DNA of 49,184 nt from a bacterium (GTDB lineage: Bacteria > Actinomycetota > Acidimicrobiia > Spongiisociales > Spongiisociaceae): contig JAPPGV010000149.1 in assembly GCA_028821235.1 (NCBI GenBank), positions 1 to 49,184 of the forward strand, written 5' to 3'. The notes beneath the pieces were generated by a model. It worked only from the letters and a program-made list of their open reading frames with translations. It did no database searches and had not been told where the DNA came from. The position numbers and the translations under genes were made by a program. Below, one piece after another: positions 27,729-47,233 of the stretch. Numbering within the stretch: the first letter of the stretch is position 1; each line of letters begins with the position of its first letter.

Positions 27729-29111
27729 TCAGGTTCGCGGCGCGAACACCGCCATGGATCCGGCGCCCAGGACGACGGGACGCTCCTCCTCGAGAGGCTG
27801 GAGGAAGACGTAGTCGTCTCCCCGGTCGGAGGCGGCGTACACGAAGGCCGAGCTGTCCGGCGCCCAGAGCGTGTGGCTGTGGCCGTACTGGTTCCAGAAG
27901 GGGATGTAGCTGCGCAGGAAGTTCTCGGTGGGGGCGATGCCGGGGTATGAGGTGATGGCGCCGTCCTGGTACACGTCCATCGAGAGCCGGCTCGCCTCGC
28001 CGCTTATTCCGAGCAGGAGGATCTTGCGGCTGTCGGGGCTCCACTGCCAGGCCACCGTGTTGGGGGCGTCGAGCTCCGCTACCTGACCGCTACCCGGCTC
28101 CACCAGGTACATGGAGGTGGGGCGGGCCAGGTTGTGGAGCGAGTAGGCCACCTGCCTGCCGTCGGGGGATACCGCGAAGGCGAAGAAACCGGCTCCCGTC
28201 GCGATCACTTCGACCTCACCGCTCACCAGGTCATGGATCACCAACTCGTCCGGGGGCTCCTCGATCTGGTTCCGGGCGGGGCGCACGTACATGATCGAGT
28301 GGCCGTCGGGCATCCAGGACGGCGCCTGGTAGGCCGACCAGACGAAGTCGAAGGTGGCTACGGGGGTGATCTCTCCGGAGGCCGGGTCGATGATCTGAAG
28401 GCGGGAGTTGTCGAGGTGGGTAAGCAGCCGCGAGCTGTCCGGCGACCAGTGGAAGTAGTACGAGAGGGCGGAGTCCACGATCTCCACCATCCCCGTGTCC
28501 AGGTCGAGGATCGCCAGGCCGACCTCGGAATCGGTGGCTCCCAGCATCGCCACGAAGCGACCGTCCGGACTCCAGTGGATGTAGAACACCACGAAGGGTG
28601 TCTCGTAGGCGGCCAGGGTTCCGCCGCTTCCAGGCCCGATGACCAGCCAACTCTCGGTAGTCGAGGCTCTCGAGAAGGCCACCAGCTGGCCGTCCGGCGA
28701 CCAGATGGGCTGGGCCAGGAAGCCATCCGCCCTCTCCACGTACAGGGCGTTCCGCTCGGCTCCGGGGCCGACGACGGTGATGCCTCCGCCGAACCGCCCG
28801 TCGACCAGCACCGGGGCGGTAAGCGCCTCCATCCCTTGGGCCGACCGCTCCGGCGCGGCCGGCATGGTCGTCGTGTCGGCTGCCGAGACGGTCGTGGCGC
28901 CGGTCCCTGTCGCGGCGGGCGCGGTGGTGGCGGTGGTCGTTGCGGCGCCGTCCTCCGCTGCTGCGGCGGTGGTCGCCTCCGTGGAAGGACTTCCCTCGAA
29001 AACGACCTCGTTGCTCGAGGTGGAGCAGGCCGGGCCGAGAGCCATCATCGCCGCGACGAGGGCAAGCATTCCTGGTCGCCACGATCGGGCCGCGCCTGCT
29101 CGGAGGCTCAT
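27729..29111 (-). CDS. Seven-bladed TolB/PD40-type beta-propeller lipoprotein
   Basis: 460 aa from ATG 29111; the longer open frame to 29228 would overlap the divergent Fe-S gene and lacks a signal peptide. The signal peptide ends in MMALGPACSTSSNE, a lipobox. A Thr/Ala-rich linker follows. Then seven S-P-D blades can be counted: IWSPDGQLVAFS, HWSPDGRFVAML, HWSPDSSRLLTH, SWMPDGHSIMYV, AVSPDGRQVAYS, WQWSPDSRKILLL and LWAPDSSAFVYAA. It is a surface-exposed protein of unknown role, perhaps binding protein or peptide. Downstream is thiamine pyrophosphokinase, with no spacing. Confidence 0.85.
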   Translation of the reverse strand: MSLRAGAARSWRPGMLALVAAMMALGPACSTSSNEVVFEGSPSTEATTAAAAEDGAATTTATTAPAATGTGATTVSAADTTTMPAAPERSAQGMEALTAPVLVDGRFGGGITVVGPGAERNALYVERADGFLAQPIWSPDGQLVAFSRASTTESWLVIGPGSGGTLAAYETPFVVFYIHWSPDGRFVAMLGATDSEVGLAILDLDTGMVEIVDSALSYYFHWSPDSSRLLTHLDNSRLQIIDPASGEITPVATFDFVWSAYQAPSWMPDGHSIMYVRPARNQIEEPPDELVIHDLVSGEVEVIATGAGFFAFAVSPDGRQVAYSLHNLARPTSMYLVEPGSGQVAELDAPNTVAWQWSPDSRKILLLGISGEASRLSMDVYQDGAITSYPGIAPTENFLRSYIPFWNQYGHSHTLWAPDSSAFVYAASDRGDDYVFLQPLEEERPVVLGAGSMAVFAPRT

Positions 29112-29175
29112 GTGTGGACTGTACCCGACTCGCCACGGCAACGGTTGGCCGGACGGGTGGCTACCCTTGCTGACC

Positions 29176-29811
29176 ATGAGCACCAACGCATTGATGAACT
29201 TCAGCGACGAAGCCCTTGAGCGGATCATCGAGATCCGTGACCAGGAGCCGGGCGAAGACGAGTACGGCCTGCTGATCGAGATAACCGGCGTCCAGGGACT
29301 CCAGTTCGGATACTCGTTGTCGTTCGTCCCGCTCGACGAGGCCGAGCCGTCCGATCACGTGGAGCGCCACGGTGATCTGGCGGTCGTCATCCCGTCTGCG
29401 GACACCGAGAACATGACCGGCGCCCGGCTGGCCATGTCGTCGAACCCGATGACCCCGGGATTGGCCATCGACAACCCGAACAACCCGTCGCCGGACATCC
29501 CGGACTTCGACGCCGGGGACCTGACCGGTCCGATCGCGGAGCGGGTCCAGCAGGTCCTTGAACACCAGGTGAACCCGGCGATCGCGGCCCACGGAGGCCA
29601 GGCCAGCCTGGTGGGCGAGGAGAACGGTGTGGTCTATCTCCAGATGGGAGGAGGCTGCCAGGGTTGCGGGATGGCCGCCATGACCCTGCGCCAGGGAATC
29701 GAGCGGATCCTGCGCGAGGCCATCCCCGAGATCGTCGAGATCGTGGACATCACCGACCACCAGGGCGGCGAGAACCCCTACTACGCGGCATCCCACGCCC
29801 ATTCCCACTAG
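29176..29811 (+). CDS. NfuA-like Fe-S cluster carrier protein
   Basis: 211 aa. The N-terminal part (about 10-105) is a degenerate A-type/HesB-like domain (FSDEALERIIEIRDQEPGED, ITGVQGLQFGYSLSFVPLDE) lacking its Cys ligands. A linker is followed by the NifU C-terminal domain (about 118-200) with VNPAIAAHGGQASLVG and the CxxC motif in MGGGCQGCGMAAMTLRQGIE. This two-domain layout is that of NfuA, which carries 4Fe-4S clusters to target enzymes. The TAG stop lies in the end of the repeat element that follows, so the native stop may have been replaced. Confidence 0.88.
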   Translation: MSTNALMNFSDEALERIIEIRDQEPGEDEYGLLIEITGVQGLQFGYSLSFVPLDEAEPSDHVERHGDLAVVIPSADTENMTGARLAMSSNPMTPGLAIDNPNNPSPDIPDFDAGDLTGPIAERVQQVLEHQVNPAIAAHGGQASLVGEENGVVYLQMGGGCQGCGMAAMTLRQGIERILREAIPEIVEIVDITDHQGGENPYYAASHAHSH

Positions 29812-29914
29812 GAGGGTACTGAAAAATGTCCAGCTGTCCCGACACTCGGCAATGAAACCCCAGGTCAAGGGATCGCGGACCAACACATCCCCGTCTTTTT
29901 CAGCACCCTCCTAG
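29808..29914. mobile_element. 107-bp MITE-like inverted-repeat element
   Basis: The ends CTAGGAGGGTACTGAAAAA and TTTTTCAGCACCCTCCTAG are inverted repeats with one mismatch over 19 bp. There is no coding capacity. A related element in the opposite orientation lies at 47083-47186; both share the terminal TAGGAG-x2-TGCTGAAAAAGACGGGG and the internal GGACATT-x-TTCAG. The left end supplies the stop codon of the Fe-S protein gene. It is probably a non-autonomous derivative of a DDE transposon, or a mobile terminator-like repeat. Confidence 0.8.
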
Positions 29915-29919
29915 CCCGC

Positions 29920-29939
29920 TCAGGCTAGGCCAAGCCTGA
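29920..29939 (+). terminator. 7-bp hairpin after the element
   Basis: TCAGGCT (29920-29926) and AGCCTGA (29933-29939) with loop AGGCCA. It could be the original terminator of the Fe-S gene, now pushed downstream by the element. The remaining 280 bp to the next gene hold no gene I can support; an AT-richer stretch near 30120-30175 probably contains that gene's promoter. Confidence 0.4.
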
Positions 29940-30219
29940 CGTAACGTTCCTGAAAACGCCTCCGGCCTGGAGAATCCTCAACAAGCGCGGAATGCGCTGC
30001 GAGGCGGCGCCCCTGGGACGCGGAGGCGAGCGGGTCGCCTGTCACGTCGCCGCGCCGGTCTTAGAGCCGATCGTGCGGGTCGATCCATCCACATATTCAC
30101 TGTCAAAAACCCAGGAGAAATCCCTGACCACCGTTTCATCTGTCTTTTTAGATCAGAAAGTGTGGTAAAGTGCCGGCAGACCTGCCCAGCCACATTTTCA
30201 AGACCAGAGCGAGGGTGCG

Positions 30220-32037
30220 ATGTCTACAGGATTCGGAGCTTCGGCCGCCCTTGATGACCAGATCCAACTCATGCTCGATCTCTTGGCGCAAGGTCGCCCT
30301 CCCGCGGAGATCGAAACGGCCCATGTGGACGTCAAAGAGGAGCCCGGCCGTCGCGACCGGCGCGGCAAGTCCCTGCCGGCAAGCCGCGAGAACGAGGAGG
30401 CTGCCGGGTACCTCACGGGCGAAATGGCCTGCATGGCCAATACCCCCGGGGGTGGCGCGATCATCTTGGGTGTGTCCGACGACGGTGTCAGGATCGGCAC
30501 AGGGCTTGATCCGGAGTGGCTCCGCCACCGCATATTTGAACTGACACAGCGCAAGCTGACCGTCTCTGCCCGACCCTTGATGTTGGACGGCTGCCGCTTG
30601 CTGGTGCTGTCCACGCCCGAAGCTTGGGAGCCGATCCCTTACAGGGGTCGCTATCGCTGGCGTTTGAACGACGACTGCGTTGATGTCGATTTCACATCGT
30701 GGAATGACAGGCGGCTGCTTCGCGGAGGCTTCGATTGGTCGGCCCAGCCGTCATCTAACTCACTGGCCGACGTCAAGCAGACCGCTGTCGACATCGCCAG
30801 GCGGTACATGCGCGAGAACGGCAACGGTAGTGGTGACGGCAGCCATCTGGCGATGGCGACGAGTCAGGACATGATCCGCCGTCTCAACCTTGTGGACGCA
30901 GACGGCCGACTGACCAACGCAGGATCGCTGCTCTTTGTGGGAACTCCCGAGATCGGAATCGACTACGTTCGGCGGGAGCTCCCCGGTGGCGACAGCACGC
31001 ATCGGGTGCCCCGTGCCGGTCGGCCGTGGTCGAGCGGCTTCAGCGCAGGGTTCGGGCCGTCCTTCAGCCGGGAGGAGGTGGGCCGCCGCCCGTTGCTAGA
31101 ACAGTTCGCCGCGGTGGAGCAGGCCATGGACGTGGCGAACGCCGTGGTTCATGTGCCGGACGGCTTTGCGGCGCATCAGATCGATTCCATCCCGCTGAGA
31201 GCCATGAGGGAGGCGCTGGTCAATGGCATCGTCCACCGCGACTGGAACTCCCCGCAACCGACGACCGTCGAGCATGTCGGGTCCGTCCTGACTGTCACCT
31301 CGCCGGGGGGCTTCGTCGGTGGGGTCGCCCCCTCGAACATCATCACGCATCCTGCGGCGCCCCGTTATCGAAGTCTCGCCGAGGCCATGGCGGCTATGCG
31401 GTTGGGCGAGCGGGAGGGGATCGGCGTGGACCGCATGACGGCGGACATGCTCTCTCTGGGTCACCCGCCGCCGGTGTTCTCGGAGGTTGACGGCCCGTAC
31501 GTGCGGGTCGCGCTGATCGGCGGCAAGCCGGATCTGGAGTGGCTCCACTTCATCGGCGGGCTCGAGCCCTCCTCGCGGGGTGATCTGGACCTGCTGCTTC
31601 TCGTGAACTGCCTGATCGACCGCGGCTGGGCCGATGCCAACTTGGCGGCTCCGGTTCTGCAAAGACCTGTCCAGGAGACGTTGTCGATGATCGAGCGGGT
31701 TGCTGATCGAGTTCACATCGACGGAAGGCCGATCATCGAGAATGTCCACGGCATTCCCGAAGGTCACCCGCCTGCCCTCCGGCTGTCGGACGGTGCCCGC
31801 AGGCAATTCGTCCGCAAGCTCGAGCGATTCGCCACGCGCGCCGGACGGGAGTCGGTGATGCTGGACTACGCCCGGGCGAGGGGACGCATCTCCTCGACCG
31901 AGGCCGGCGACCTGGCGGGTGTCACCGCGTCTCACGCCGCCCAGATGCTTGCCGCGCTGGCTGATGCCGGGCACCTGGTGGGGAGCCGTCCCAACCGGCG
32001 GGGCCGCGGCTTCCACTACCTGCCAGTGCGGACGTGA
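30220..32037 (+). CDS. Schlafen/AlbA_2-domain protein with ATPase-like and winged-helix regions
   Basis: 605 aa. An N-terminal AlbA_2 (Schlafen-like) domain at about 25-165 shows THVDVKEEPGRRDRRGKSLP, GEMACMANTPGGGAIILGVS and DDGVRIGTGLDPEWLRHRI. A central region resembles the divergent ATP-binding domain of COG2865 (MREALVNGIVHRDWNSPQPT, VTSPGGFVGGVAP, GEREGIGVDRM). The C-terminus looks like a winged helix (SSTEAGDLAGVTASHAAQML, ALADAGHLVG, RGRGFHYLP). Such proteins are annotated as predicted transcriptional regulators, and some Schlafen-type proteins act in phage defence; which applies here is unknown. It stands alone between a repeat element and the pst operon. Confidence 0.8.
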   Translation: MSTGFGASAALDDQIQLMLDLLAQGRPPAEIETAHVDVKEEPGRRDRRGKSLPASRENEEAAGYLTGEMACMANTPGGGAIILGVSDDGVRIGTGLDPEWLRHRIFELTQRKLTVSARPLMLDGCRLLVLSTPEAWEPIPYRGRYRWRLNDDCVDVDFTSWNDRRLLRGGFDWSAQPSSNSLADVKQTAVDIARRYMRENGNGSGDGSHLAMATSQDMIRRLNLVDADGRLTNAGSLLFVGTPEIGIDYVRRELPGGDSTHRVPRAGRPWSSGFSAGFGPSFSREEVGRRPLLEQFAAVEQAMDVANAVVHVPDGFAAHQIDSIPLRAMREALVNGIVHRDWNSPQPTTVEHVGSVLTVTSPGGFVGGVAPSNIITHPAAPRYRSLAEAMAAMRLGEREGIGVDRMTADMLSLGHPPPVFSEVDGPYVRVALIGGKPDLEWLHFIGGLEPSSRGDLDLLLLVNCLIDRGWADANLAAPVLQRPVQETLSMIERVADRVHIDGRPIIENVHGIPEGHPPALRLSDGARRQFVRKLERFATRAGRESVMLDYARARGRISSTEAGDLAGVTASHAAQMLAALADAGHLVGSRPNRRGRGFHYLPVRT

Positions 32038-32061
32038 TCACGTTTCCGATTGCTGGGCAAG

Positions 32062-32083
32062 GTTTACCTCGCGTTCACCCTGG
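32062..32083 (+). promoter_or_regulatory. PHO box (two 11-bp direct repeats) upstream of pstS
   Basis: GTTTACCTCGC (32062-32072) and GTTCACCCTGG (32073-32083) are adjacent 11-bp units matching the Streptomyces PhoP box pattern GTTCACC-N4. They lie 65 bp before the pstS start. The response regulator encoded in the same operon (37159-37854) is the likely binder, giving phosphate-starvation autoregulation. Confidence 0.8.
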
Positions 32084-32147
32084 AAGACCGGTCCCTTAAC
32101 CCTGACGGCTTAGCGTTCCCTCCGGATTGAGGGTTCAGAGAGCATGG

Positions 32148-33203
32148 ATGCCGATCGGCAACGTCTGGCGCCCGCTCGCGCTCGTCGCGTTTATGGCGCT
32201 GGTTGCCGCGGCATGCGGTTGGGGACCCGACTACAGCCGCGTAACCACCGTCGCCACCACCCTCCCTACCCAAGGGGCTGCCTTGCAGGGTGGTGGTTCG
32301 GCGTTGTCCGGCAGCCGTGGTCTGCCTCCGTCCGATCCGTTGTCGGTGTCCGGGGACATCGTCGTGGCCGGTTCATCGACGGTGTTTCCGTTGGCGGAGG
32401 CGATGGCGGCGCGGTTCGAGGACGAGGGCTACTCGGGTCTGATCACGGTCGATTCGATCGGCTCGGGCGCCGGGTTCGAGCGGTTCTGTTTGGCCGGCGA
32501 GTCGGACATTTCGAATGCATCCCGTCCCATCAAGGACCAGGAGGTGGAGCAGTGCCGGGCGATCGGTCGGGAGCCGATCGAGTTCCGGGTGGGGACGGAT
32601 GCCCTGGCGGTGACGGTCTCGCCCGGGAACACGTTCACAACCGATCTGACGGTTGCGGAGTTGGCGGTGCTGTTCTCGACGGCGACGACTTGGCAGGATG
32701 TCCGGGCCGGGTTCCCGGCGAATCCGATCCAGCGGTTCATTCCGGGTACGGACTCGGGGACGTTCGACTACTTCGTGGAGGAAGTGTTCCACGAGGATGA
32801 GGGTCCGATCCTGGCGGCCGGCAACACGCAGTTCTCGGAGGACGACAATGTGCTGGTCCAGGGCATTTCGGGGGATGGTTGCGATCCGTCGAATACCGCG
32901 ACCACTTGCGCGGTCGGCTTCTTCGGGTATGCGTACTACACGGAGAACGGCGATCTGTTGAGGGTGTTGGATGTCGAGGGCGTGGAGCCGACCACGGACT
33001 CGGTGAACGCGAACACCTATCCGCTGGCCCGGCCGTTGTACATGTACTCGACGGCTTCGATCATCGCGGAGAAGCCGCAGGTCGGGGCGTTCCTGAACTT
33101 CGTGCTCCAGTTCGTGAACGAGGAGGTCGGCGAGGTCGGATACTTCCCGGCGCCCGACAGCGTCCTCGACGGCGCGGCCGCCGAGCTCAACGCCGCCCTG
33201 TAG
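32148..33203 (+). CDS. pstS: Phosphate-binding lipoprotein PstS
   Basis: 351 aa from ATG 32148; an in-frame TTG at 32127 would add seven residues. The signal peptide ends in LVAFMALVAAACGWG, a lipobox. After a low-complexity linker the binding protein begins DIVVAGSSTVFPLAEAMAAR, with the phosphate-loop residues in VDSIGSGAGFERFCLAGESD, ISNASRPIKDQEVEQC and IPGTDSGTFDYFVEEVF. It delivers phosphate to PstCA in the membrane. It is first gene of the pst operon with a PHO box upstream. The TAG stop coincides with the start of a degenerate copy of the inverted-repeat element. Confidence 0.92.
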   Translation: MPIGNVWRPLALVAFMALVAAACGWGPDYSRVTTVATTLPTQGAALQGGGSALSGSRGLPPSDPLSVSGDIVVAGSSTVFPLAEAMAARFEDEGYSGLITVDSIGSGAGFERFCLAGESDISNASRPIKDQEVEQCRAIGREPIEFRVGTDALAVTVSPGNTFTTDLTVAELAVLFSTATTWQDVRAGFPANPIQRFIPGTDSGTFDYFVEEVFHEDEGPILAAGNTQFSEDDNVLVQGISGDGCDPSNTATTCAVGFFGYAYYTENGDLLRVLDVEGVEPTTDSVNANTYPLARPLYMYSTASIIAEKPQVGAFLNFVLQFVNEEVGEVGYFPAPDSVLDGAAAELNAAL

Positions 33204-33250
33204 ATGGGTACCGCAAGAGTGTCCGGTTGGCCCGACTCTCGGCAACGAGA
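33201..33250 (+). mobile_element. Degenerate left half of the 105-bp element
   Basis: From TAG 33201 the sequence TAGATGGGTACCGCAAGAGT aligns with the element at 29808 (TAGGAGGGTACTGAAAAAT). The match continues through GTCCGGTTGGCCCGACTCTC and GGCAACGA. The right end is not recognisable. It lies in the 101-bp gap between pstS and pstC and again provides the host stop codon. Confidence 0.55.
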
Positions 33251-33304
33251 CGGCGGGATGGATAGTCCCGGCCGCCGAGGGGAGACGGAACCATCGCGAC
33301 CCGT

Positions 33305-34264
33305 GTGACATCGGAGGCCCCACCGCCGGCCGGTTCCCTCCGTAAGAGGCGGCGGCCGGGCGAGGCGGTGGTACGTGGTCTGCTGTTCATCGCAGCCGCC
33401 CTGTCGATCCTCACCACGGTGGGCATCGTCTTCGAGTTGGGGAAGGAGGCCCTGCTCTTCTTCAGGTCGGAGGAGGCGTCGCTGGCCGGGTTCCTGTCCT
33501 CCACGCAATGGCAACCGGCCATTCTGGACTTCGGGATCTGGCCGCTGGTCCTGGCCACGCTGACCACCTCGGTCACGGCCATGGTGGTGGCGTTGCCGGT
33601 GGGTCTGGCCACCGCCATCTACCTCAGCGAGTACGCCACCCCCCGGGTGAGGGGCACCATCAAGCCGGTGCTCGAGATCCTGGCCGGCATCCCGACGGTT
33701 GTCTACGGCTACTTCGCCCTCACCTTCATGACCCCGCTCCTCAGGTCCATCCTGGGAGTCAGCGTGGTGGAGATCTTCAACACGGCATCCGCCGGAATCG
33801 TGGTGGGCATTCTCATCATCCCGCTCGTCAGCTCGATGTCCGAGGACGCCCTCCACGCGGTGCCGATGTCGCTCCGGGAGGCGTCGTATGCGGTCGGGGC
33901 CACCAGGTTGGAGACCTCGCTGCGGGTGGTCCTGCCGGCTGCTCTCTCGGGTATCACGGCAGCCTTCGTGGTGTCGATCTCCCGGGCCATCGGCGAGACC
34001 ATGGTGGTGGCGATCGCGGCCGGCGCGGGGCCCAAGAACTTCACCTTCGGCGAGGACAGCCTGTTCGGCTACATCCTCAACCCGTTCGTGGCGGGCGAGA
34101 CCATGACCGGGCACATCGTCCGCATCAGCGGGGGTGACCTGAGCTACAACTCGATCGACTACAACTCCATCTTCGCCATCGGCCTGGCGCTGTTCGTCAT
34201 CACCCTGACGCTCAACGTCCTGAGCCGCCGGTTCGTGGCCCGATTCCGCGAGGTGTACGAGTGA
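33305..34264 (+). CDS. pstC: Phosphate ABC transporter permease PstC
   Basis: 319 aa, GTG start at 33305. Six membrane helices are visible, starting RGLLFIAAALSILTTVGIVF. The permease coupling (EAA) loop is MSLREASYAVGATRLETSLR. Conserved stretches are IYLSEYATPRVRGTIKPVLE, ILAGIPTVVYGYFALTFM and ISRAIGETMVVAIAAGAGP. It forms the channel with PstA. The stop overlaps the pstA start as GTGA. The 101-bp gap from pstS, carrying an element remnant, may reduce read-through relative to pstS. Confidence 0.93.
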   Translation: MTSEAPPPAGSLRKRRRPGEAVVRGLLFIAAALSILTTVGIVFELGKEALLFFRSEEASLAGFLSSTQWQPAILDFGIWPLVLATLTTSVTAMVVALPVGLATAIYLSEYATPRVRGTIKPVLEILAGIPTVVYGYFALTFMTPLLRSILGVSVVEIFNTASAGIVVGILIIPLVSSMSEDALHAVPMSLREASYAVGATRLETSLRVVLPAALSGITAAFVVSISRAIGETMVVAIAAGAGPKNFTFGEDSLFGYILNPFVAGETMTGHIVRISGGDLSYNSIDYNSIFAIGLALFVITLTLNVLSRRFVARFREVYE

Positions 34265-35628
34265 CGACGTCCGGCACGGAAGTCAACGGCGGGGCCTCCG
34301 ACCTCCTGCAGACCTCCGCGCAGATGAGGCGCCGGCAGCGCCGGGGACTCGTCGCGAGGCTCGCGCTGCTGGGCGCCCTGATGGTGGCCGTGGCGGCGCT
34401 GGTGACCCTGATCGTGACCATCCTGAACTCGTCGTTCGGCCTGGTGGCCGTGGAGAACGAACGCTCCCCGGGCGAGTTGGTGGCGAGCCGGGGATACCCG
34501 GAGGGCACCGCGCTCGGCGACCTGACCAAGGGGGATCTGGTAGCCCTCCTCGAAGCCGAGATCTCGACCAACCTGGGCCGCCGGTTCGAGCGGGAGCAAC
34601 GCTTCTTCGGCGACCGGATGGTCTTCGAGGATCTGTACGTGCTCAACGACCTGTGCATGACGGACGACCCCCCGCCGGCCTGCTACCTGCCCGCCCGGAG
34701 CCATTCCCAGGTGGAGGCGCTGGTGGTGGAGCGGGTGGTGGAGCCGACCATCGTAGGCACCTGGTCCTTCTTCTCGTCAGTGTTCAGCCGTGACGACGTC
34801 GAGGCATACGCGGCGGAGAAGTACCCCGGCGCGGCACTGGAGTTCCGATCCTGGCTCTCGTGGGACTTCGTGGTCAGCCCGCAGTCGCCGGAGCCGGCGA
34901 TCGCCGGGATCCGCACCGCCCTGCTCGGGTCGCTCTGGGTGGTCCTGATCACCCTGGCCTTCTCTTTCCCCATCGGGGTCGGCGCCGCCATCTACCTGGA
35001 GGAGTATGCGCGCGAGAACCGGCTTACCGCCATCCTGCAGACCAACATCAACAACCTGGCCGGCGTGCCCTCGATCATCTACGGGATGCTCGGTCTGGCG
35101 ATCTTCGTCCGTACCCTGGAGCTCATTACCAGCGGTTCGTTCCTGGGGACGGGCGGTGAGGCGACCGCCAACGGCCGGACCATCGTCTCGGCCGGTCTCA
35201 CGCTCGGCCTGCTCATCCTGCCGATCATCATCATCAACGCCCAGGAGGCGATCCGGGCCGTTCCGGGCTCGCTGCGGCAGGCGGGCATGGCGCTGGGGTC
35301 CACCAGATGGCAGACAGTGCGCTCCCACGTTCTCCCGAACGCCCTTCCCGGCATCCTGACGGGCACCATCCTGGCCGTCGCCAGGGCGCTCGGGGAGACC
35401 GCACCCCTGGTCGTGGTGGGGGCATCGACCTTCATAACCACCGATCCGAGCGGCCCGTTCTCGAAGTTCACGGTGCTGCCGATCCAGATCTACCAGTGGA
35501 CCAGCCGACCTCAGGACGAGTTCCGCAACATCGCCGCCGCAGCCATCCTGGTGCTGCTGGTGCTGCTCCTGACGCTCAACACGGCGGCGGTGATCCTTAG
35601 AAACAAGTATTCTCGGAGGACAGAATGA
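34261..35628 (+). CDS. pstA: Phosphate ABC transporter permease PstA with large N-terminal extracytoplasmic insert
   Basis: 455 aa against about 280-300 in most PstA proteins. Helix 1 (about 33-58, [20 protein letters not shown]) is followed by a roughly 150-residue hydrophilic segment (to about 210). That segment contains [20 protein letters not shown], two Cys in [16 protein letters not shown] and a further acidic stretch. The usual permease domain then follows: [36 protein letters not shown], the EAA loop [20 protein letters not shown] and [17 protein letters not shown]. The insert should face the outside and could bind PstS or a cell-envelope component. Both ends are coupled by 4-bp overlaps to pstC and pstB. 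Confidence 0.92.
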
Positions 35629-36476
35629 CGACCGTGGGCAAGCCTGAGGTGAACGAGAATAAGCGCGTCGACCTGAACGTTCCGATGGAGACCACGACCG
35701 GGCCGGCGCTCGAGACCTTCGCCATGGAGGCGGTGGACCTCAGTGCCTACTACGGAGAGTTCCGGGCTGTCCGGGACGTCAACCTGTCGTTCCGGGACCG
35801 CCAGATCACAGCCCTGATCGGACCGTCCGGATGCGGTAAGACCACCCTGTTGCGGACCCTCAACCGGATGAACGACCTGGTTCAGGGCGCCCGGGCGGAG
35901 GGCGAGGTCCGGTTCCACGGGCAGAACATCTTCGACGCGTCGGTGGATCCGGTCGAGTTGCGGAAGCGGGTGGGGATGGTCTTCCAGAAGCCCAACCCCT
36001 TCCCCAAGACCATCTACCAGAACGTGGCCTGGGGCGCCCGGATCAACGGGATGAAGCAGGACCTGGACGCCCTGGTGGAGCACTCCCTCCGCCAGGCCGC
36101 CCTCTGGGACGAGGTCAAGGACAAGCTCGACGAGAGCGGCTACTCCCTGTCCGGCGGCCAGCAGCAGCGTCTCTGCATCGCCCGCGCCATCGCGGTGAAG
36201 CCCGAGATCATCCTGATGGACGAGCCGACCTCGGCGCTCGATCCGGTTGCGACCCTGCGGATCGAGGAGCTGATCCAGGAGTTGAAGGTCAACTACACGA
36301 TCATCATCGTCACTCACAACATGCAGCAGGCGGCCCGGGCTTCGGACCACACGGTCTTCCTCAACATGGACTCCGACCGGGCCGGGTACGTGGTGGAATC
36401 GGGCACCACGGGCACGCTCTTCACGAGGCCTGCCCGCCAGGAGACCGAGGACTACATCACGGGCCGGTTCGGATGA
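35625..36476 (+). CDS. pstB: Phosphate ABC transporter ATPase PstB
   Basis: 283 aa, start in an ATGA overlap with pstA. The first ~30 residues are an extra, polar lead. Then [20 protein letters not shown] opens the ATPase. Walker A is [20 protein letters not shown], the signature is [20 protein letters not shown], Walker B is [13 protein letters not shown] and the switch His is in [32 protein letters not shown] is typical of PstB. It hydrolyses ATP on the cytoplasmic side of PstCA. The next gene, phoU, starts in an ATGA overlap. Confidence 0.95.
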
Positions 36477-37162
36477 CCGAGTTCCGCAGCCTCTTCCATT
36501 CCGAGCTCAACCAGCTCGAAGTCCTGCTGCTCGACATGTCGGCGCTGGCGGAGGTTCAGATCAACAACGCGGTGGAGGCGCTGCTGCAGGGCGATGCGGA
36601 GCTCGCCCACCAGGTGGTGCTGGGGGATCTCGAGATCGATCGGCTCTACGTGGAGGTGGAGCGGCGCTGGCACGAGGTGATGGCCCGCCAGACCCCGGTC
36701 GCCTCGGATCTGCGGCTGATGTCGCTCATCCTCCAGGCCGGGCACAGCCTGGAGCGGATGGGCGACCAGGCGTCCAACATAGCCAAGATCGTGGAGGCCA
36801 CGTCCACCCTTCCCACCAACAGGACCATCCTGCTGCATATCCGGGAGATGCGGTCGATCGTCGTGCCGATGGTGGAGACGGCCATGGAGGCGCTGGTCAA
36901 GAGGGACCTCAACCTCGCCCTCCGGCTCCCGGAACTGGATGATCCGGCGGATTGGTTGAACCGCAACATGTGGAAGGAGGTGGCCGCCTGCGCGTCCAAT
37001 CCGGAGATGCTTGAGTGGGCCGTCCACATGATGCTGGTGTCGAGGGCCCTGGAGAGGGTGGGCGACCGGGCGGTCGACATCGGCGAGCAGGTGGCGTTCC
37101 TGCTGACCGGCGAGCAGCACGAGTTCCCGGAGGGCTGGGTACCCGCGCCCGGGTCCGCATGA
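36473..37162 (+). CDS. phoU: PhoU phosphate-signalling regulator
   Basis: 229 aa, two tandem three-helix PhoU repeats. Repeat 1 runs from [20 protein letters not shown] and repeat 2 from [20 protein letters not shown]. The metal-binding E-x3-D/R-x4-D pattern appears as [17 protein letters not shown] and [17 protein letters not shown]. PhoU links Pst transport state to the sensor kinase and restrains the Pho response when phosphate is ample. It is coupled to pstB and to the response regulator gene by ATGA overlaps. Confidence 0.93.
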
Positions 37163-37854
37163 ACGGGACGTCGATCCTGGTGGTCGAGGACGAGGAGACC
37201 CTCGCGGAGTCGCTCCGCCACAACCTGATCCGGGAGGGTTACGAGGTCACGGTGGTGGACGACGGTCGCATCGCCCTCGATACCTTCCGGGCCAAGGCCG
37301 CCGATCTGGTGGTTCTGGACCTGATGTTGCCCGGACTGGGCGGCTTCGACGTGCTGAGGCAGATCCGGGCCTCGTCCGAAGTGCCGGTGGTGGTGGTCAC
37401 CGCCAAGGATTCGGAGCCCGACGTGGTGGCCGGCCTCGAGCTCGGCGCCGATGACTACGTCACCAAGCCCTTCTCCATGCGGGAGCTGATGTCCCGGATC
37501 AGCGCCAACCTTCGCCGGGCCTCCCGGGGTGTCCACCCTCCCGATTCCCTGGTGCTGGACGGTGGGCCGGTGGAACTGGACGTGGATCGCCATGAGGTCC
37601 GGGTCAAGGGCGAACTGGTGGACTTCCGGCCCAAGGAGTTCGAGCTACTGGAGGCGTTGCTCCTGCGCAAGGGCAGGCTGGTCCATCGGCAGGTCCTCCT
37701 GGAGGACATCTGGGGGGTGCCCTTCTTCGGCGACCCCAAGACGCTCGATGTGCACATCCGTCGCGTGCGAGAGAAGGTCGAGGATGATCCCCGTTCTCCA
37801 AAATGGATCGTCACGGTTCGGGGCCTGGGGTACAAGTTCGTCGTTGAGGGCTGA
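37159..37854 (+). CDS. OmpR/PhoB-family response regulator of the phosphate operon
   Basis: 231 aa from ATG 37159 in an ATGA overlap with phoU. The receiver has SILVVEDEETLAESL, phosphoacceptor Asp54 in LVVLDLMLPGLGGFDVL, Thr/Lys in VVVVTAKDSEPD and DDYVTKPFSMREL. The winged-helix output domain (about 130-230) has VRVKGELVDFRPKEFELLEA, DPKTLDVHIRRVREKVED and WIVTVRGLGYKFV. It is the probable binder of the PHO box at 32062-32083; the actinobacterial name would be PhoP, the enterobacterial PhoB. The sensor gene follows after a 109-bp gap. Confidence 0.92.
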   Translation: MNGTSILVVEDEETLAESLRHNLIREGYEVTVVDDGRIALDTFRAKAADLVVLDLMLPGLGGFDVLRQIRASSEVPVVVVTAKDSEPDVVAGLELGADDYVTKPFSMRELMSRISANLRRASRGVHPPDSLVLDGGPVELDVDRHEVRVKGELVDFRPKEFELLEALLLRKGRLVHRQVLLEDIWGVPFFGDPKTLDVHIRRVREKVEDDPRSPKWIVTVRGLGYKFVVEG

Positions 37855-37869
37855 CCCGAGGCGACGCCG

Positions 37870-37952
37870 CCCGGGTGGGGCCGGTAGCGGTCGGACCGCG
37901 GCCCTCCACCGGATCGTCCCCCTCCGCTCCGCGACCGCTCCACCCACCCGGG
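37870..37952 (+). promoter_or_regulatory. Long-range inverted repeat between response regulator and kinase genes
   Basis: CCCGGGTGGG (37870-37879) is perfectly complementary to CCCACCCGGG (37943-37952), enclosing 63 bp that also contain GC-rich dyads. It fills nearly all of the gap between the two genes, otherwise the only gap over 4 bp from pstC onward. The transcript could fold into a strong structure that lowers kinase expression relative to the regulator. Confidence 0.5.
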
Positions 37953-37963
37953 GGCCGTGAGCG

Positions 37964-39187
37964 ATGGCTTCCCCGGTCCCTGCTGCTACCCGCCGTCTCG
38001 GCCCGGCGCTGGCTCGGTGGGTCACCTCGGCGAGCTTGGTGGCAGCCGGCGTCGCCGCGCTGCAGGCGCCTGCGCCGTGGCCGTGGGTGGGCATGGGCGG
38101 CCTGGCGATTGGGGTGGTCTCCCTGGCGCTCCAGTACCGGACTCATCGCCGGGAGCGGAGCGCCGCCGAGACCCGGATCGAGGAACTTGAGGCGGATGCG
38201 CTGGAGCTGTCCAGGAGTCGGGATCTGTACGGATCGCTTCTCTCGGCCTTGCCGGTGGGCGTGGTGGCCGTTCAATCCGGGCAGGCCGTGTACGCCAACC
38301 CGGCCGCCATCGAGGTACTCGGCGAGCGGGTGACCCAGGCGGATGCACCCATGCCGGGCGCGGTGCGGGATGTCATCGACGGAGCGCTTTCCGGCCGATC
38401 CTCGTCGGCTCAATTCTCGCAGGGACTGCCCCGCCGGGTGATGGAGGTTGCTGCCCGACCGGTCGGAGAGGGTCTGGTGTTGCTCCATCTGTCGGACATA
38501 ACCGAGCGGTCCCGGATCGACCGGATGCGCCAGGACTTCGTGATCGCGGCGTCACACGAGCTCAAGACTCCGGTGGCGGCGATCAGGGCGGCGGCCGAGA
38601 CGGTCCTGATGGCGCTCGAGGAGGATCACGATGTGGTGTCCAGCTTCTCGGGACGCATCCTCGACAACGCGGTCCGGATGTCGAGGACCGTCTCCGATCT
38701 CCTCGACCTGTCCCGTCTGGAGTCGGGCATCCTGCCGTTCGAGGCCTGTGACCTGGCGGAGGTGGTGGGAGAGGTAGTGGAGCGGTTCCTCACCGCACGC
38801 CCCTCGATCGAGTGGGATGCCGAGCCCACCCCGGTCATGGGCAGCCCCTCCTACCTGGCGCTGGCGTGCCGGAACCTGCTGGAGAACGCGGTGCGCCACA
38901 CCCCGGATGATGGTTGGATCCGTATCACCGTAGGCGCCGCCCAAGGCGTGGCGACCGTGGTGGTCGCGGACGACGGAACCGGTATTCCCTCGGAGGAGCT
39001 GCCGCGGATCTTCGAGCGCTTCTACCGGGTCGACGCGGCGCGCTCGCGCGCCACCGGGGGGACGGGCCTGGGACTGGCGATCGTCAAGCACGTGGCGGAC
39101 CTGCACGATGGGCGCATCGAGGTGGAGAGCAGGCTGGGGCAGGGTTCCACCTTCCGGCTCCGCATCCCGGTTCGGTCCCCTTCGTAA
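37964..39187 (+). CDS. PhoR-type sensor histidine kinase
   Basis: 407 aa, ATG 37964. Two close hydrophobic helices (about 17-33 and 40-57; PWVGMGGLAIGVVSLAL) leave almost no extracytoplasmic loop, as in PhoR-type kinases that read Pst/PhoU rather than an external ligand. A PAS-like domain follows (LLSALPVGVVAVQSGQAVYA, NPAAIEVLG). HisKA has the phosphoacceptor His in FVIAASHELKTPVAAIRAAA. The ATPase has NLLENAVRHTPDDGWIRI, VADDGTGIPSEELPRIFERF and GGTGLGLAIVKHVADLH. It is last gene of the phosphate operon and the likely partner of the preceding response regulator. Confidence 0.9.
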   Translation: MASPVPAATRRLGPALARWVTSASLVAAGVAALQAPAPWPWVGMGGLAIGVVSLALQYRTHRRERSAAETRIEELEADALELSRSRDLYGSLLSALPVGVVAVQSGQAVYANPAAIEVLGERVTQADAPMPGAVRDVIDGALSGRSSSAQFSQGLPRRVMEVAARPVGEGLVLLHLSDITERSRIDRMRQDFVIAASHELKTPVAAIRAAAETVLMALEEDHDVVSSFSGRILDNAVRMSRTVSDLLDLSRLESGILPFEACDLAEVVGEVVERFLTARPSIEWDAEPTPVMGSPSYLALACRNLLENAVRHTPDDGWIRITVGAAQGVATVVVADDGTGIPSEELPRIFERFYRVDAARSRATGGTGLGLAIVKHVADLHDGRIEVESRLGQGSTFRLRIPVRSPS

Positions 39188-39575
39188 CCCGGACTCCTCC
39201 ACCCTGACCCCCCGCTCCGCTCGCGTCCGGAATGGCCCGCCAGGGCACGGTGACGCAACCGGGCAGGTCCCGGTGGGTCGAAGGCGCTAGCCGACGGCCC
39301 CCAAAGATGGAGATCCGATGGAGCGGATGAAACGTGTCACACCCCCGTTGTACGTTGCCGATCGCCAAGCACCTACACCGGCCGATGCGTCTACCGATCG
39401 GAACGGCCGGCCCGCAGGGAACACACGGGCTTCGTGGAGCGAACCGCCGATCCCGGCAGCCGGCCGGGCATGGCCGACCACGCTCCGAACCAGGACAGGT
39501 GGTGGCGGGGGAGGGCCCGGCGGGAACGCCGCTCCGGCGGCGCGATTTTCGCGTTCTTGGCCGGAGTAAAGCCCC
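39188..39575. other. Convergent intergenic interval, no gene seen
   Basis: 388 bp between the stops of the sensor kinase and malic enzyme genes. Several overlapping open frames of 60-106 codons exist in three frames, but they are Arg/Pro-rich and typical of GC-driven noise. CCGGCAGCCGGCCGG near 39461 is GC-rich but not a clean terminator. Confidence 0.45.
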
Positions 39576-40961
39576 TCAGAGGTGCGCGGCCGACTCCACG
39601 GCCTCGGCCACCCGTTTCACCACGCCCGGGTTGAACACCGACGGGATGATGTAGCTGGCGTTGATCTGCTCGGGCCGTACCACCGAGGCGATGGCGCGGG
39701 CGGCGGCGACCTTCATGGCTTCGGTGATCTTCGTGGCACGGGCGTCCAAGGTCCCGCGGAAGACCCCCGGGAAGGCCAGCACGTTGTTGATCTGGTTGGG
39801 GTAGTCGGAGCGGCCGGTGGCCACCACCGGCGCGTAGTCGCGCGCTACCTGGGGATCGAACTCGGGGTCGGGATTCGCCAGCCCGAAGACGATGGGATCG
39901 GGCGCCATGCGTTTGATCTCCCTGGCGTCGAACAGGTCGGGGCCGCTCACGCCAACGAACACATCCATGCCTTCCAACGCCTCGAGGATGCCGCCCGTAC
40001 GTCCCTCGTGGTTGGTGTTCTCCCTCAGCCAGATCTTCGAGGCGTCCCTGAACGTCCGCTCCGCGCTGATGATGCCGCCCCGGTCTAGGGCCACGATGTC
40101 CGCGATGCCGGCCGCCTCGAGGAGCTTGGCGACCGCCACGCCGGCCGCGCCGGCGCCGCTCATGGCCACCTTGACATCGCCCATCTCCTTGTTCACCACC
40201 CGTAGGGCGTTGGTCAGGGCGGCCAGGACCACGATGGCCGTACCGTGCTGGTCGTCGTGGAAGACCGGGATGTCGAGCGACTTGCGGAGCCGGTCCTCGA
40301 TCTCGAAGCAGCGCGGCGCGGCGATGTCCTCGAGGTTGATGCCCCCGAAGACCGGCGCCAGCATCTCGACCGCCCGCACGATCTCGTCGGTGTCCTGGGA
40401 GTCGAGGCAGATCGGCCAGGCGTTGACGTTGGCGAAGCGCTTGAACAGGGCGGCCTTTCCCTCCATGACCGGTAGGGCGGCCACCGGCCCGATGTTGCCG
40501 AGTCCGAGCACGGCGCTCCCGTCCGTGACGATGGCCACCGAGTTCCCCTTGACGGTGAGGTTGCGGGCATCCTCGGGCCGCTTGGCGAGCGCCCGGCTTA
40601 CCCGGGCCACACCCGGGGTGTAGGCCATCGACAGTTGGTCGCGGTTGCGGAGCCGGATCCGGGTCTGGACCTCGAGCTTCCCACCCAGATGGAAGAGGAA
40701 GGTGCGGTCCGAGACCTTGTGGACCGATATCCCCTCGACCGCGGCCACCGCATCGGCGATCTCGTCAGCATGGTCGTCATCGCGGGTGTTGGCGGTCACG
40801 TCCAGCACCAGCCGGGTGGCCTCCGATTCGACGAAGTCGAGCGCGGTCACCACCCCGCCGGAGCTCCCGATGGCGGTGGTGATGCGGCCGATGGCGTGCT
40901 GATCATCGGCCGGGGCGTACAATCGGAGGGTTACCGAATATCCCGCGCTTGCCAGTGTCAC
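39576..40961 (-). CDS. NAD(P)-dependent malic enzyme with N-terminal ACT domain
   Basis: 461 aa, GTG start at 40961. An ACT-like domain (about 8-80, YSVTLRLYAPADDQHAIGRI, SSGGVVTALDF) precedes the malic domain with LSMAYTPGVARVSRALAK, LGLGNIGPVAALPVMEGKA, Lys and Asp ligands in NLEDIAAPRCFEIEDRL and DIPVFHDDQHGTAIVVLAAL. The NAD domain has VAMSGAGAAGVAVAKLLEAA and the closing FGLANPDPEFDP. It converts malate to pyruvate and CO2. The ACT domain suggests amino-acid control, as in other actinobacterial forms. It is monocistronic. Confidence 0.92.
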   Translation of the reverse strand: MTLASAGYSVTLRLYAPADDQHAIGRITTAIGSSGGVVTALDFVESEATRLVLDVTANTRDDDHADEIADAVAAVEGISVHKVSDRTFLFHLGGKLEVQTRIRLRNRDQLSMAYTPGVARVSRALAKRPEDARNLTVKGNSVAIVTDGSAVLGLGNIGPVAALPVMEGKAALFKRFANVNAWPICLDSQDTDEIVRAVEMLAPVFGGINLEDIAAPRCFEIEDRLRKSLDIPVFHDDQHGTAIVVLAALTNALRVVNKEMGDVKVAMSGAGAAGVAVAKLLEAAGIADIVALDRGGIISAERTFRDASKIWLRENTNHEGRTGGILEALEGMDVFVGVSGPDLFDAREIKRMAPDPIVFGLANPDPEFDPQVARDYAPVVATGRSDYPNQINNVLAFPGVFRGTLDARATKITEAMKVAAARAIASVVRPEQINASYIIPSVFNPGVVKRVAEAVESAAHL

Positions 40962-41062
40962 TTCCGAGTCTTCTCTGCTGTCCTGGGTTTGGAGACCTTA
41001 CCCGGTCGATCCCTTTGCCGGTGGCTCAGCTCTTGGTTGCCGATTCCGCGTTGGCATGGCAT

Positions 41063-41554
41063 TCATGGGAGTGTGGCTCGGACCCAAGCCGGAAGCTCTT
41101 CGATGGGGCGCATGCTGTCCTTGCGCTTGGTCAGCTTGAACGTGACGCTCTGACCCTCCGCCATCCTTACGAGTCGTCCGGCTCTCCCCTCTGCCACATG
41201 GCCCTTCCGCCACGCGTTGAACCGTATGCTCGCCGGTGCGATACCCAGACACATGAGGTACTCGTAGTCCCGGTCGAGTCGGACATGGTTGAACTGGAAG
41301 TTCCCGCCCACGTCCTCCGAGGCCGTTTTGACCTCGAAGCGGGCGCCTTCAATGGTCATATCGGTGGGAGTGACGCGGGCACCGTTGCCGGTATTGATGC
41401 CGTTGCGGTTCAGGTATCGGTGGAGGGAGTCCTCACCGATCTGACCTCGGTTGGTATTAGCGACGGACCGAAAGCTCTCTAGGGGCGCACCGGTCCACTT
41501 CGATGGCGGGGAATGATCGCTGATGACCTCGATGAGCAGTTCGACCGCGCTCAT
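41063..41554 (-). CDS. Type II restriction endonuclease, PD-(D/E)XK type (putative)
   Basis: 163 aa from ATG 41554 (MSAVELLIEVISDH), set by an ATGA overlap with the methyltransferase stop; the longer open frame starts inside that gene. A compact nuclease core is suggested by GQIGEDSLHRYLNRNGINTG and D-x8-E-V-K in TPTDMTIEGARFEVKTASED. The rest is FNHVRLDRDYEYLMCLGIAP and NAWRKGHVAEGRAGRLVRMA. I do not know the recognition sequence. Cutting activity is inferred from the motif and from the tight coupling to the methyltransferase. Confidence 0.7.
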   Translation of the reverse strand: MSAVELLIEVISDHSPPSKWTGAPLESFRSVANTNRGQIGEDSLHRYLNRNGINTGNGARVTPTDMTIEGARFEVKTASEDVGGNFQFNHVRLDRDYEYLMCLGIAPASIRFNAWRKGHVAEGRAGRLVRMAEGQSVTFKLTKRKDSMRPIEELPAWVRATLP

Positions 41555-42285
41555 TGGGGAGGCTTCCACACTCCTCGACGATCGTCTCGCTTCCAAAAGA
41601 CCAGGAAGTAGGAGTGGTTCTTCCGCGCATGAACCTGCCGGACGGCGCGGCTGACACCCGGCCGGTTATTCCTCACGATGACGAACAAGTCCTCCGCAAC
41701 GAATCCGAGGCGCTCATATGCCTGCATGATTTCCACGTGGGTGAACCGTTGGCGGTTCGAGCACACCTCGTCCTGGCACTTCACGATGAGCACGCCACGG
41801 TCGCGGAGCACGCGGTGCGCCTCCCTTCCGGCATCCACATACAACTCGAGAACTGCCTCGTGGTACTTGCTTCGAGTGCGGTTCCCGGTCTTGTTGTTGC
41901 GGTAGTAGTCCTCGAACGGTGAGGCGGATCCGTGCGCGGTACCCCCGGGTGTGTGCATGTATGGGGGATCGAGCACCACGCAGTCGATCTCACCGTCTGT
42001 GTATGGCAGATCGCGGCAGTCGATCCCGTCCCGGATGTCTGAAGCTCGTAGTTCGTACTGTTCCGGTGGTATGCGACGCCAGAACACCCCCTTCCCATAG
42101 GTCACGTCGGCGACGATGCTCCCCGGTTTGACATACAGACCCAGAATGCTGGGGAAGGCGCGGTCGTTGCCGACGGTAAAGGCGCTCAGAACCAGATCGT
42201 TGGTTGGCTCACCGTTACGGACGCTGCGGCCACTCACCGGAAAGAGTGTACGGGTGGTTTCCGCCGTCTCGGGGCTTGCTGGCAT
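41551..42285 (-). CDS. Type II DNA methyltransferase (DPPY motif, N6-adenine or N4-cytosine)
   Basis: 244 aa. The catalytic motif is CVVLDPPYMHTPGG. The SAM-binding region is probably VKPGSIVADVTYGKGVFWRR, a variant of motif I. Other conserved pieces are EAHRVLRDRGVLIVKCQDEV and HSYFLVFWKRDD. It should modify the target of the partner nuclease encoded downstream, whose start overlaps this stop. This order makes the host methylate before it cuts. It sits between malic enzyme and polX, an insertion of a defence gene pair in housekeeping surroundings. No mobility gene is adjacent. Confidence 0.82.
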   Translation of the reverse strand: MPASPETAETTRTLFPVSGRSVRNGEPTNDLVLSAFTVGNDRAFPSILGLYVKPGSIVADVTYGKGVFWRRIPPEQYELRASDIRDGIDCRDLPYTDGEIDCVVLDPPYMHTPGGTAHGSASPFEDYYRNNKTGNRTRSKYHEAVLELYVDAGREAHRVLRDRGVLIVKCQDEVCSNRQRFTHVEIMQAYERLGFVAEDLFVIVRNNRPGVSRAVRQVHARKNHSYFLVFWKRDDRRGVWKPPQ

Positions 42286-42382
42286 GTCTGGTTCTCCTCG
42301 TTCGGTACATTAGCTTGCGGCGAGGGGCCTTCGTGACTCGCCTAGGCGTGCCGAGCGGGAACAGCGTCCTCGGAGTACGAGA

Positions 42383-42396
42383 GGTGCTTCGGCACC
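42383..42396. other. UUCG-capped hairpin in the divergent leader
   Basis: GGTGC-TTCG-GCACC at 42383-42396 gives a 5-bp stem with the very stable TTCG tetraloop on the plus strand. It lies 56 bp before the polX start, in the space divergent from the methyltransferase gene. It could be a leader structure of polX. Confidence 0.45.
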
Positions 42397-42451
42397 ACCC
42401 CAGCGTCTGGTGCGGCCACCATCGGTCATCCGAGGAAGGTAGAGGAAGGGT

Positions 42452-45076: not shown

Positions 45077-45109
45077 CCGGCCAGGGTACCCGGCCGCCGA
45101 GCCTGCGGA

Positions 45110-46093: not shown

Positions 46094-46103
46094 GACGGGG
46101 TCC

Positions 46104-47072: not shown

Positions 47073-47082
47073 GTATTCGATA

Positions 47083-47186
47083 TTAGGAGCATGCTGAAAA
47101 AGACGGGGATGGTAGGCCCGTCACGCAATGACGGGTGCTCTGTTGTCGGTATCGGGCCGACCGGACATTCTTCAGCACGCTCCTAG
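47083..47186. mobile_element. 104-bp MITE-like inverted-repeat element, second full copy
   Basis: The ends TTAGGAGCATGCTGAAAAA and TTCAGCACGCTCCTAG are inverted repeats. Inside, CCCGTCA-CGCAA-TGACGGG forms a perfect 7-bp hairpin. It is related to the element at 29808-29914 in the opposite orientation: shared TGCTGAAAAAGACGGGGATG at one end and GGACATT-x-TTCAG at the other. It fills most of the gap between the acyltransferase stop and the E1 alpha start, so it might act as a terminator or affect the E1 promoter. No coding capacity. Confidence 0.8.
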
Positions 47187-47233
47187 AGCGTGCTCGCACG
47201 CCGCTGCGTGTGGCAATGGCCGGTACCGCCGAC

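What the first reader, a model, noticed from the sequence alone, without database searches (positions are those of the whole stretch)
29808..29914. MITE-like element family with three copies that donate stop codons
Two full copies (29808-29914 and 47083-47186) and one remnant (33201-33250) share ends CTAGGAG-x2-TGCTGAAAAA and internal blocks. Both copies that abut genes place the TAG of the terminal repeat exactly as the stop codon of nfuA-like and pstS. That suggests insertion at or near stop codons, or selection for insertions that end the frame cleanly.
Basis: seen in the sequence. Interest (0 to 1): 0.65.

Follow-up and report, generated by a model that had tools for sequence, protein, structure and literature searches.

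The report
Small IS1182-like hitchhiker reusing stop codons
A 101-base mobile DNA fragment, present in dozens of copies in each genome of a group of uncultured Acidimicrobiia bacteria, inserts at the two letters TA; because the fragment starts with G, landing in a gene's stop codon simply rebuilds the stop codon TAG.

Summary
The window holds two full copies (29809-29913 and, reversed, 47084-47185) and one decayed left half (33204-33256) of a non-coding inverted-repeat element. It has at least 31 copies in this genome and 16 to 41 in each of 9 congeners. Empty sites in relatives, compared for 41 filled loci, show that a 101-bp element GGAG...CTCC inserts and duplicates TA, usually in CTA. The terminal TAG is thus TA from the target plus G from the element. 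In 16 of 61 copies that TAG is a gene's stop codon. In 13 of the 14 of these with an empty relative, a stop codon was already there or one codon away: stop codons are reused, not added. The excess over chance depends on the null (P 1e-6 to 0.1). The ends match IS1182-family insertion sequences of the same class (16 of 30 loci), but no IS1182 transposase passes the cut-off in the 10 congeneric genomes. Best reading: an IS1182-type MITE, orphaned in this genus. IS1182 MITEs are known elsewhere; the TA duplication and stop-codon reuse are the new points.

The parts
29811..29911 (+). MITE copy 1, complete, 101 bp, GGAGGGTACTGAAAAA...TTTTTCAGCACCCTCC
   Evidence: nhmmer E 2.6e-32; empty orthologous site in G009 (L089)
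29809..29810 (+). left TA of the target duplication; with G29811 it forms the stop codon TAG of the NifU-domain gene
29912..29913 (+). right TA of the target duplication
29236..29811 (+). NifU-like domain gene (start not determined) ended by the TAG at the element border
   Evidence: PF01106 E 4e-23
47086..47183 (-). MITE copy 2, complete, 98 bp, variant ends (GGAGCGTGC / GGAGCATGC), flanked by TA 47084-47085 and 47184-47185; 13 bp upstream of the GTG of the E1 dehydrogenase gene
   Evidence: nhmmer E 4.7e-21; empty site with a single TA in G009 (L119); also filled in G008 (L148)
33201..33256 (+). decayed left half of a third copy; its TAG (33201-33203) is the stop codon of the PstS-like gene
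   Evidence: nhmmer 33204-33256 E 1.3e-6
32148..33203 (+). PstS-like phosphate-binding protein gene
   Evidence: PF12849 E 2.2e-32

Best explanation
This is a MITE: a non-coding, roughly 101-bp DNA element with about 19-bp terminal inverted repeats. An IS1182-family DDE transposase, not found in this genus now, probably cut it and pasted it into the dinucleotide TA (preferred context CTA), leaving TA on both sides. Because both ends of the element begin with G after TA, insertion into the TA of a TAA or TAG stop codon, in either orientation, recreates TAG with the same protein end. Such insertions are therefore close to neutral for the gene and persist. Shown: the element, its copies, empty sites, the 2-bp TA duplication at most clean sites, pre-existing stop codons, and the match of its ends to IS1182 insertion sequences of the same class. 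Inferred: that an IS1182 transposase moved it, that it is no longer mobile in this genus, and that neutrality explains its abundance at stop codons.
For: Copies: 31 matches at E<=0.001 in the own genome, 16 to 41 in the other 9 congeners; the consensus reaches the 40-candidate scoring cap in several. Empty sites: 41 filled loci, 85 alignments to unoccupied loci. In the 17 fully clean alignments (11 elements) exactly 2 bp replace the element plus its duplication: TA in 7 elements, TG in 2, TT in 1, CA in 1. The base before TA need not be C (L154, L165, L067, L070) and the base after need not be G (L073, L030, L018, L015, L063), so only TA is duplicated. Stop codons: 16 of 61 coincide; 13 of the 14 with an empty relative have a stop there or one codon away. 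IS1182: 16 of 30 examined loci have both ends matching the MITE end at 14 to 19 of 23 positions, always preceded by C; random 23-mers reach 14 or more in 27 of 5000 draws. An Anaerolineae contig carries the exact end TAGGAGGGTACTGAAAAA directly before a truncated ORF that aligns to the start of IS1182 transposase L322 (35% over 48 aa, E 0.001 in a 30-protein set).
Against: No IS1182 transposase over the cut-off in any of 10 congeneric genomes (only G007 has a weak match, 33 bits), so no resident partner. IS1182 elements with these ends always show C before TAG at both ends (16 of 16), whereas the MITE has C at 37 of 49 left and 22 of 49 right ends. For another IS1182 element a 4-bp duplication is tabulated (ISPse1, PMC3281130), not 2. 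Two loci fit a TA duplication badly: L005 (TA left, TG right, TG empty) and L007 (TA left, TC right, TC empty), which would suit insertion of A...T without duplication; L173 (TC, TC, TTC) and L074 (TT, TC, TT) favour a 2-bp duplication instead. The L247 peptide matched no Pfam or NCBIfam model.
Confidence: 0.8

Rival explanations
1. The element is a MITE of an IS630/Tc1-mariner-type transposon, which is known for TA duplication (recalled knowledge).
For: 2-bp TA duplication at empty sites.
Against: DDE_3 (PF13358) absent from all 10 congeneric genomes, while the control rang in 3 of 14 known genomes; the ends match IS1182 ends in the same class instead.
Confidence: 0.12
2. The element is kept by selection as a structured RNA or bidirectional terminator at gene ends, and mobility is secondary or long past.
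For: Two nested stems can form; 87.4% of cells pair, 11 of 27 pairs have a double change against 5.3 in shuffles. Many copies lie close to gene ends.
Against: Slid controls give nearly as many double changes (5 to 10 pairs), RNAalifold finds no consensus hairpin (-0.7 kcal/mol), no Rfam match. Pairing is expected from terminal repeats alone.
Confidence: 0.1
3. IS1634 moved it: an IS1634 element lies between two such terminal repeats in L242/L286.
For: Repeats 2110 bp apart around an NF033559 transposase.
Against: The IS1634 element has its own ends CCCGAGTTTGGCGGG inside the outer repeats; none of the other 29 IS1634 loci is bounded by a pair of TAGGAGGG ends. It simply interrupts a small element.
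Confidence: 0.02
4. Insertion is targeted to stop codons as such (by sequence or structure), rather than to any tolerated TA.
For: 16 of 61 at stop codons against 6.5% of permissive TA sites, P 1e-6.
Against: 45 of 61 copies are not at a stop codon; the null depends on a crude gene caller, and P rises to 0.1 if half the called intergenic sites are wrong and only CTA/TAG sites count. Survival bias at gene ends gives the same pattern.
Confidence: 0.1

Closest known systems
IS1182-family insertion sequences (NF033551) of class Acidimicrobiia
   Same: Ends C|TAGGAG-NN-TGCTGA or close variants at both termini, 14 to 19 of 23 positions shared with the MITE ends in 16 of 30 loci
   Different: 1.7 to 1.8 kb with a transposase gene; C before TAG invariant in those 16; not found over the cut-off in this genus
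MITEs related to ISMac2 (IS1182) in Methanosarcina acetivorans (PMC3852290, passage read)
   Same: Short non-autonomous elements assigned to IS1182, 160 to 169 bp, 7 to 14 copies, 25 to 26 bp IRs
   Different: Tabulated duplication of 4 or 0 bp instead of TA; host is an archaeon; sequences not compared here
IS1272 (IS1182 family, PMC5678879, passages read)
   Same: Same transposase family by that paper's citation
   Different: IS1272 replaces inverted-repeat targets and makes no duplication; here nothing is lost at empty sites and TA is doubled
MITEAba12 (PMC6382973, passages read)
   Same: 111-114 bp MITE, tens of copies across a bacterial family, partner inferred from shared terminal repeats
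   Different: 9-bp duplications, partner ISAba12 resident; one copy makes a premature stop codon instead of reusing one

Membership tests
MITE (prokaryotic non-autonomous DNA element) | short, no coding capacity, terminal inverted repeats | tested here: met
   93 to 105 bp in most copies, 19-bp terminal repeats, alignment of 54 copies
MITE (prokaryotic non-autonomous DNA element) | many dispersed copies with empty orthologous sites | tested here: met
MITE (prokaryotic non-autonomous DNA element) | target site duplication | tested here: met
   TA, single at most clean empty sites; two loci fit poorly (L005, L007)
MITE (prokaryotic non-autonomous DNA element) | autonomous partner with the same ends in the genome (usual, not required) | tested here: not met
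   no IS1182, IS1634 or IS630 over cut-off in the 10 congeneric genomes
IS1182-derived MITE | terminal repeats of the IS1182 type | tested here: met
   control: IS1634 loci lack them
IS1182-derived MITE | moved by an IS1182 transposase | not testable with these tools
   needs a transposition assay
IS1182-derived MITE | same duplication as the parent | tested here: inconclusive
   IS copies are flanked by CTAG at both ends, which fits 0, 2 or 4 bp; empty sites of the IS copies were not examined
IS630/Tc1-mariner MITE | related DDE_3 transposase present | tested here: not met
   0 of 10 genomes
structured RNA family (Rfam) | match to a covariance model | tested here: not met
   0 matches in window 29000-48000

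The most novel reading that the evidence does not exclude
Ends that begin with G behind a TA target make this element, and IS1182-type elements with the same ends, read-neutral at stop codons in both orientations. In a GC-rich genome, where TA is scarce and tolerated mainly between genes and in stop codons, this is a safe-landing design that lets a transposon load gene ends without damage. The CTAG flanks of IS1182 insertion sequences may then be a TA duplication inside a preferred CTAG target rather than a 4-bp duplication.
Probability: 0.3. Interest if true: 0.55.

Novelty: new member of a known kind. Interest (0 to 1): 0.42.

Why it matters
It is a clean case, with dozens of empty sites, of how a bacterial mobile element can sit exactly on stop codons without changing the protein. 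It suggests how to resolve a duplication that is ambiguous in IS1182 insertion sequences whose target is the palindrome CTAG. It also documents a genus-wide MITE load without a resident transposase in uncultured Acidimicrobiia, useful as a marker of past transposition and of exchange between species.

Tried and rejected
IS1634 as partner: looked convincing in L242/L286 (end pair 2110 bp apart) but the IS1634 has its own ends inside. IS630: absent. Insertion without duplication (element A...T, site T^N): suggested by L005 and L007 and by the inner A/T being more conserved than the outer T/A, but L173 and L074 point to duplicated TC and TT, and most sites fit TA. A 4-bp CTAG duplication: excluded where the empty site is CTAC, CTAA or CTAT but the left border still reads CTAG. 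RNA function: weak covariation, not clearly above slid controls. Viral contigs: no match to the end. Plasmids: no match to the consensus or to the L247 peptide. A possible excision footprint at L001/L089 (three extra bases) and end-like stubs at L072 empty sites were seen and not pursued. Literature: no paper in the searches was seen to describe MITE insertion that rebuilds stop codons by TA+G; only titles, abstract starts and passages of four papers were seen, so this is not proof of absence.

Limits: counts are capped at 40 scored candidates per genome, at 2. The 61-element set was made by dropping a hand list of 23 orthologous or repeated locus ids (some were never in the set). The 54-sequence alignment A1 leaves out 7 of the 61 (L012, L016, L025, L029, L086, L168, L170), mostly decayed or length-variant copies. 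The 31 non-own elements were those closest to copy 1 or the consensus, so well-kept copies are over-represented. The gene caller is a simple codon-usage script and missed or cut some genes. In one search, 31 of the loci were scanned for second ends, not all. The idea that these hosts live in sponges is recalled from isolate names and was not tested.

Full report
What is in the window. Two complete copies and one half copy of one element are present. With a profile built from 49 family members, copy 1 is 29809-29913 (+), copy 2 is 47185-47084 (-) and the remnant is 33204-33256 (+, left half), with E-values 2.6e-32, 4.7e-21 and 1.3e-6; the remnant was not in the profile. Copy 1 reads TA-GGAGGGTACTGAAAAATGTCC at the left and closes with TTTTTCAGCACCCTCC-TA. 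The genes nearby are a NifU-domain gene, a PstS-like gene, an E1 dehydrogenase and a GPAT-type acyltransferase.

How common it is. A search with copy 1 gives 31 matches at E<=0.001 in the own genome and 16 to 41 in each of 9 congeneric genomes. With the consensus, 20 to 41 are found, limited by 40 scored candidates, with up to 84 candidates at first look. Over 395 genomes of the class, full-length matches occur only in the 10 genomes of the genus and in one genome of another genus of the family (G011); three further genomes have short partial hits. In named contigs the exact end occurs in Acidimicrobiia MAGs such as SB0661_bin_4, SB0664_bin_25, CO36404bin_8 and CO36387bin_10, and in RHO1_bin_3/64, titled only as bacterium. 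The 54-copy alignment has 76% mean column identity.

Boundaries and target. Relatives lacking the element at the same place were found by searching with flanks and taking stretches. For 41 filled loci, 85 alignments to unoccupied loci were inspected (a good part have indels or diverged flanks and are not informative). Seventeen alignments, covering 11 elements, are perfect on both sides, with exactly two bases in the place of element plus duplication: TA for 7 elements (L150, L073, L166, L154, L030, L018, L015), TG for L083 and L005, TT for L074, CA for L019. Further loci (L001, L006, L010, L063, L070, L077, L079, L082, L165) also show a single TA with small differences beside it. The base before TA can be A or G and the base after it A, C or T, while the element side almost always reads TA-G; so the duplication is TA and the element starts with G. 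C precedes TA at 37 of 49 left ends, so CTA is preferred. Results against: L005 (TA/TG, empty TG) and L007 (TA/TC, empty TC) fit an insertion without duplication better. L173 (TC/TC, empty TTC) and L074 (TT/TC, empty TT) fit a 2-bp duplication of other dinucleotides.

Stop codons. A codon-usage gene caller found the terminal TAG to be the stop codon of an adjoining gene in 16 of 61 elements, 10 at the left and 6 at the right end. Among tolerated TA sites in the same loci, 45 of 696 (6.5%) are stop codons. Binomial P is 1.1e-6 for that null, 2.5e-4 at 10% and 0.10 at 19%; the own-genome set alone is 5 of 30. For 14 of the 16 an empty relative was compared. In 13 of them at least one relative has a stop codon at the same place or one codon away: TAG in L001, L067, L079, L082, L165, L063, L150 and L166, TAA in L003, TGA in L005 and L083, one codon earlier in L077, and after a one-base shift in L009. 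L019 has CAG there and TGA two codons on (the L009 frame was read by hand from that output). In the L001 relative an earlier in-frame TAG lies four codons upstream, so the later stop is not the working one there. Two relatives of L150 have no stop there, and two of L165 have TGA near the place. So insertion mostly falls into existing stop codons and rebuilds them.

Where it comes from. The element has no gene. IS630-type DDE_3 is absent from the genus. IS1634 was a false lead: in L242/L286 it interrupts another small element that has the same ends. IS1182-family transposases occur over the cut-off in 30 of 395 genomes of the class, in none of the 10 of the genus. Of 30 IS1182 loci examined, 16 have both ends matching the MITE end at 14 to 19 of 23 positions, for example L321 CTAGGAGAGTGCTGAAGTAG and L322 CTAGGTGGCTGCCGAAAAAGTCGG, all preceded by C; 5000 random 23-mers reached 14 or more 27 times. 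The other 14 loci have different or unresolved ends. In an Anaerolineae contig the exact end precedes a truncated ORF resembling the start of transposase L322. The same 18-bp end with other interiors of 137 to 312 bp occurs in Chloroflexi, Acidobacteria, Nitrospinae and Gemmatimonadetes MAGs, although about 15 chance matches of the single end are expected in that collection (my estimate).

Structure. Two nested stems (terminal repeats and GTTGGCCCG/CGGGCCAAC) can form. Pairs with double changes exceed shuffles (11 against 5.3) but not clearly the slid controls (5 to 10), and RNAalifold finds no consensus hairpin. I do not claim an RNA function.

Known work. IS1182-related MITEs are tabulated for Methanosarcina (PMC3852290, passage). 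ISPse1 of that family is tabulated with a 4-bp duplication (PMC3281130, table passage), and IS1272 replaces inverted repeats without duplication (PMC5678879, passages). This family is thus heterogeneous, and the element is a new member of a known kind, with a 2-bp TA duplication as its distinguishing feature.

Noticed in passing
L016 right flank (query 893-1072): The flank of this copy is itself a repeat with many matches in G008 and G009, several of them starting at base 12 of a contig, which suggests another repeat family at contig breaks.
   Followed up: no
L001, L003, L009, L010, L017, L021, L024 against G008: Flanks of these loci, which share the element, are 98-100% identical between G000 and G008, while loci empty in G008 are 79-95% identical (some shared ones, such as L008 and L011, also only 87-94%): a mosaic that suggests recombination between species or bin mixing (G000 contamination 4.99%).
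   Followed up: no
window 47073-47085: Only 13 bp separate copy 2 from the GTG start of the E1 dehydrogenase gene, in G000 and similarly in G008 (L148), so the hairpin sits in that gene's leader.
   Followed up: partly
L148 about 2270-2320: In G008 a decayed end at the end of the acyltransferase gene supplies a TGA stop codon (TTGGGAGGATGCTGA), a different way in which the ends can terminate a frame.
   Followed up: no
L242/L286: An IS1634 element has inserted into a small element with the same TAGGAGGG ends in an Acidimicrobiia MAG (Plut_88890); part of the sequence reads N.
   Followed up: yes
L020/L173: A copy lies between tRNA-like genes, with TC instead of TA at both borders.
   Followed up: no
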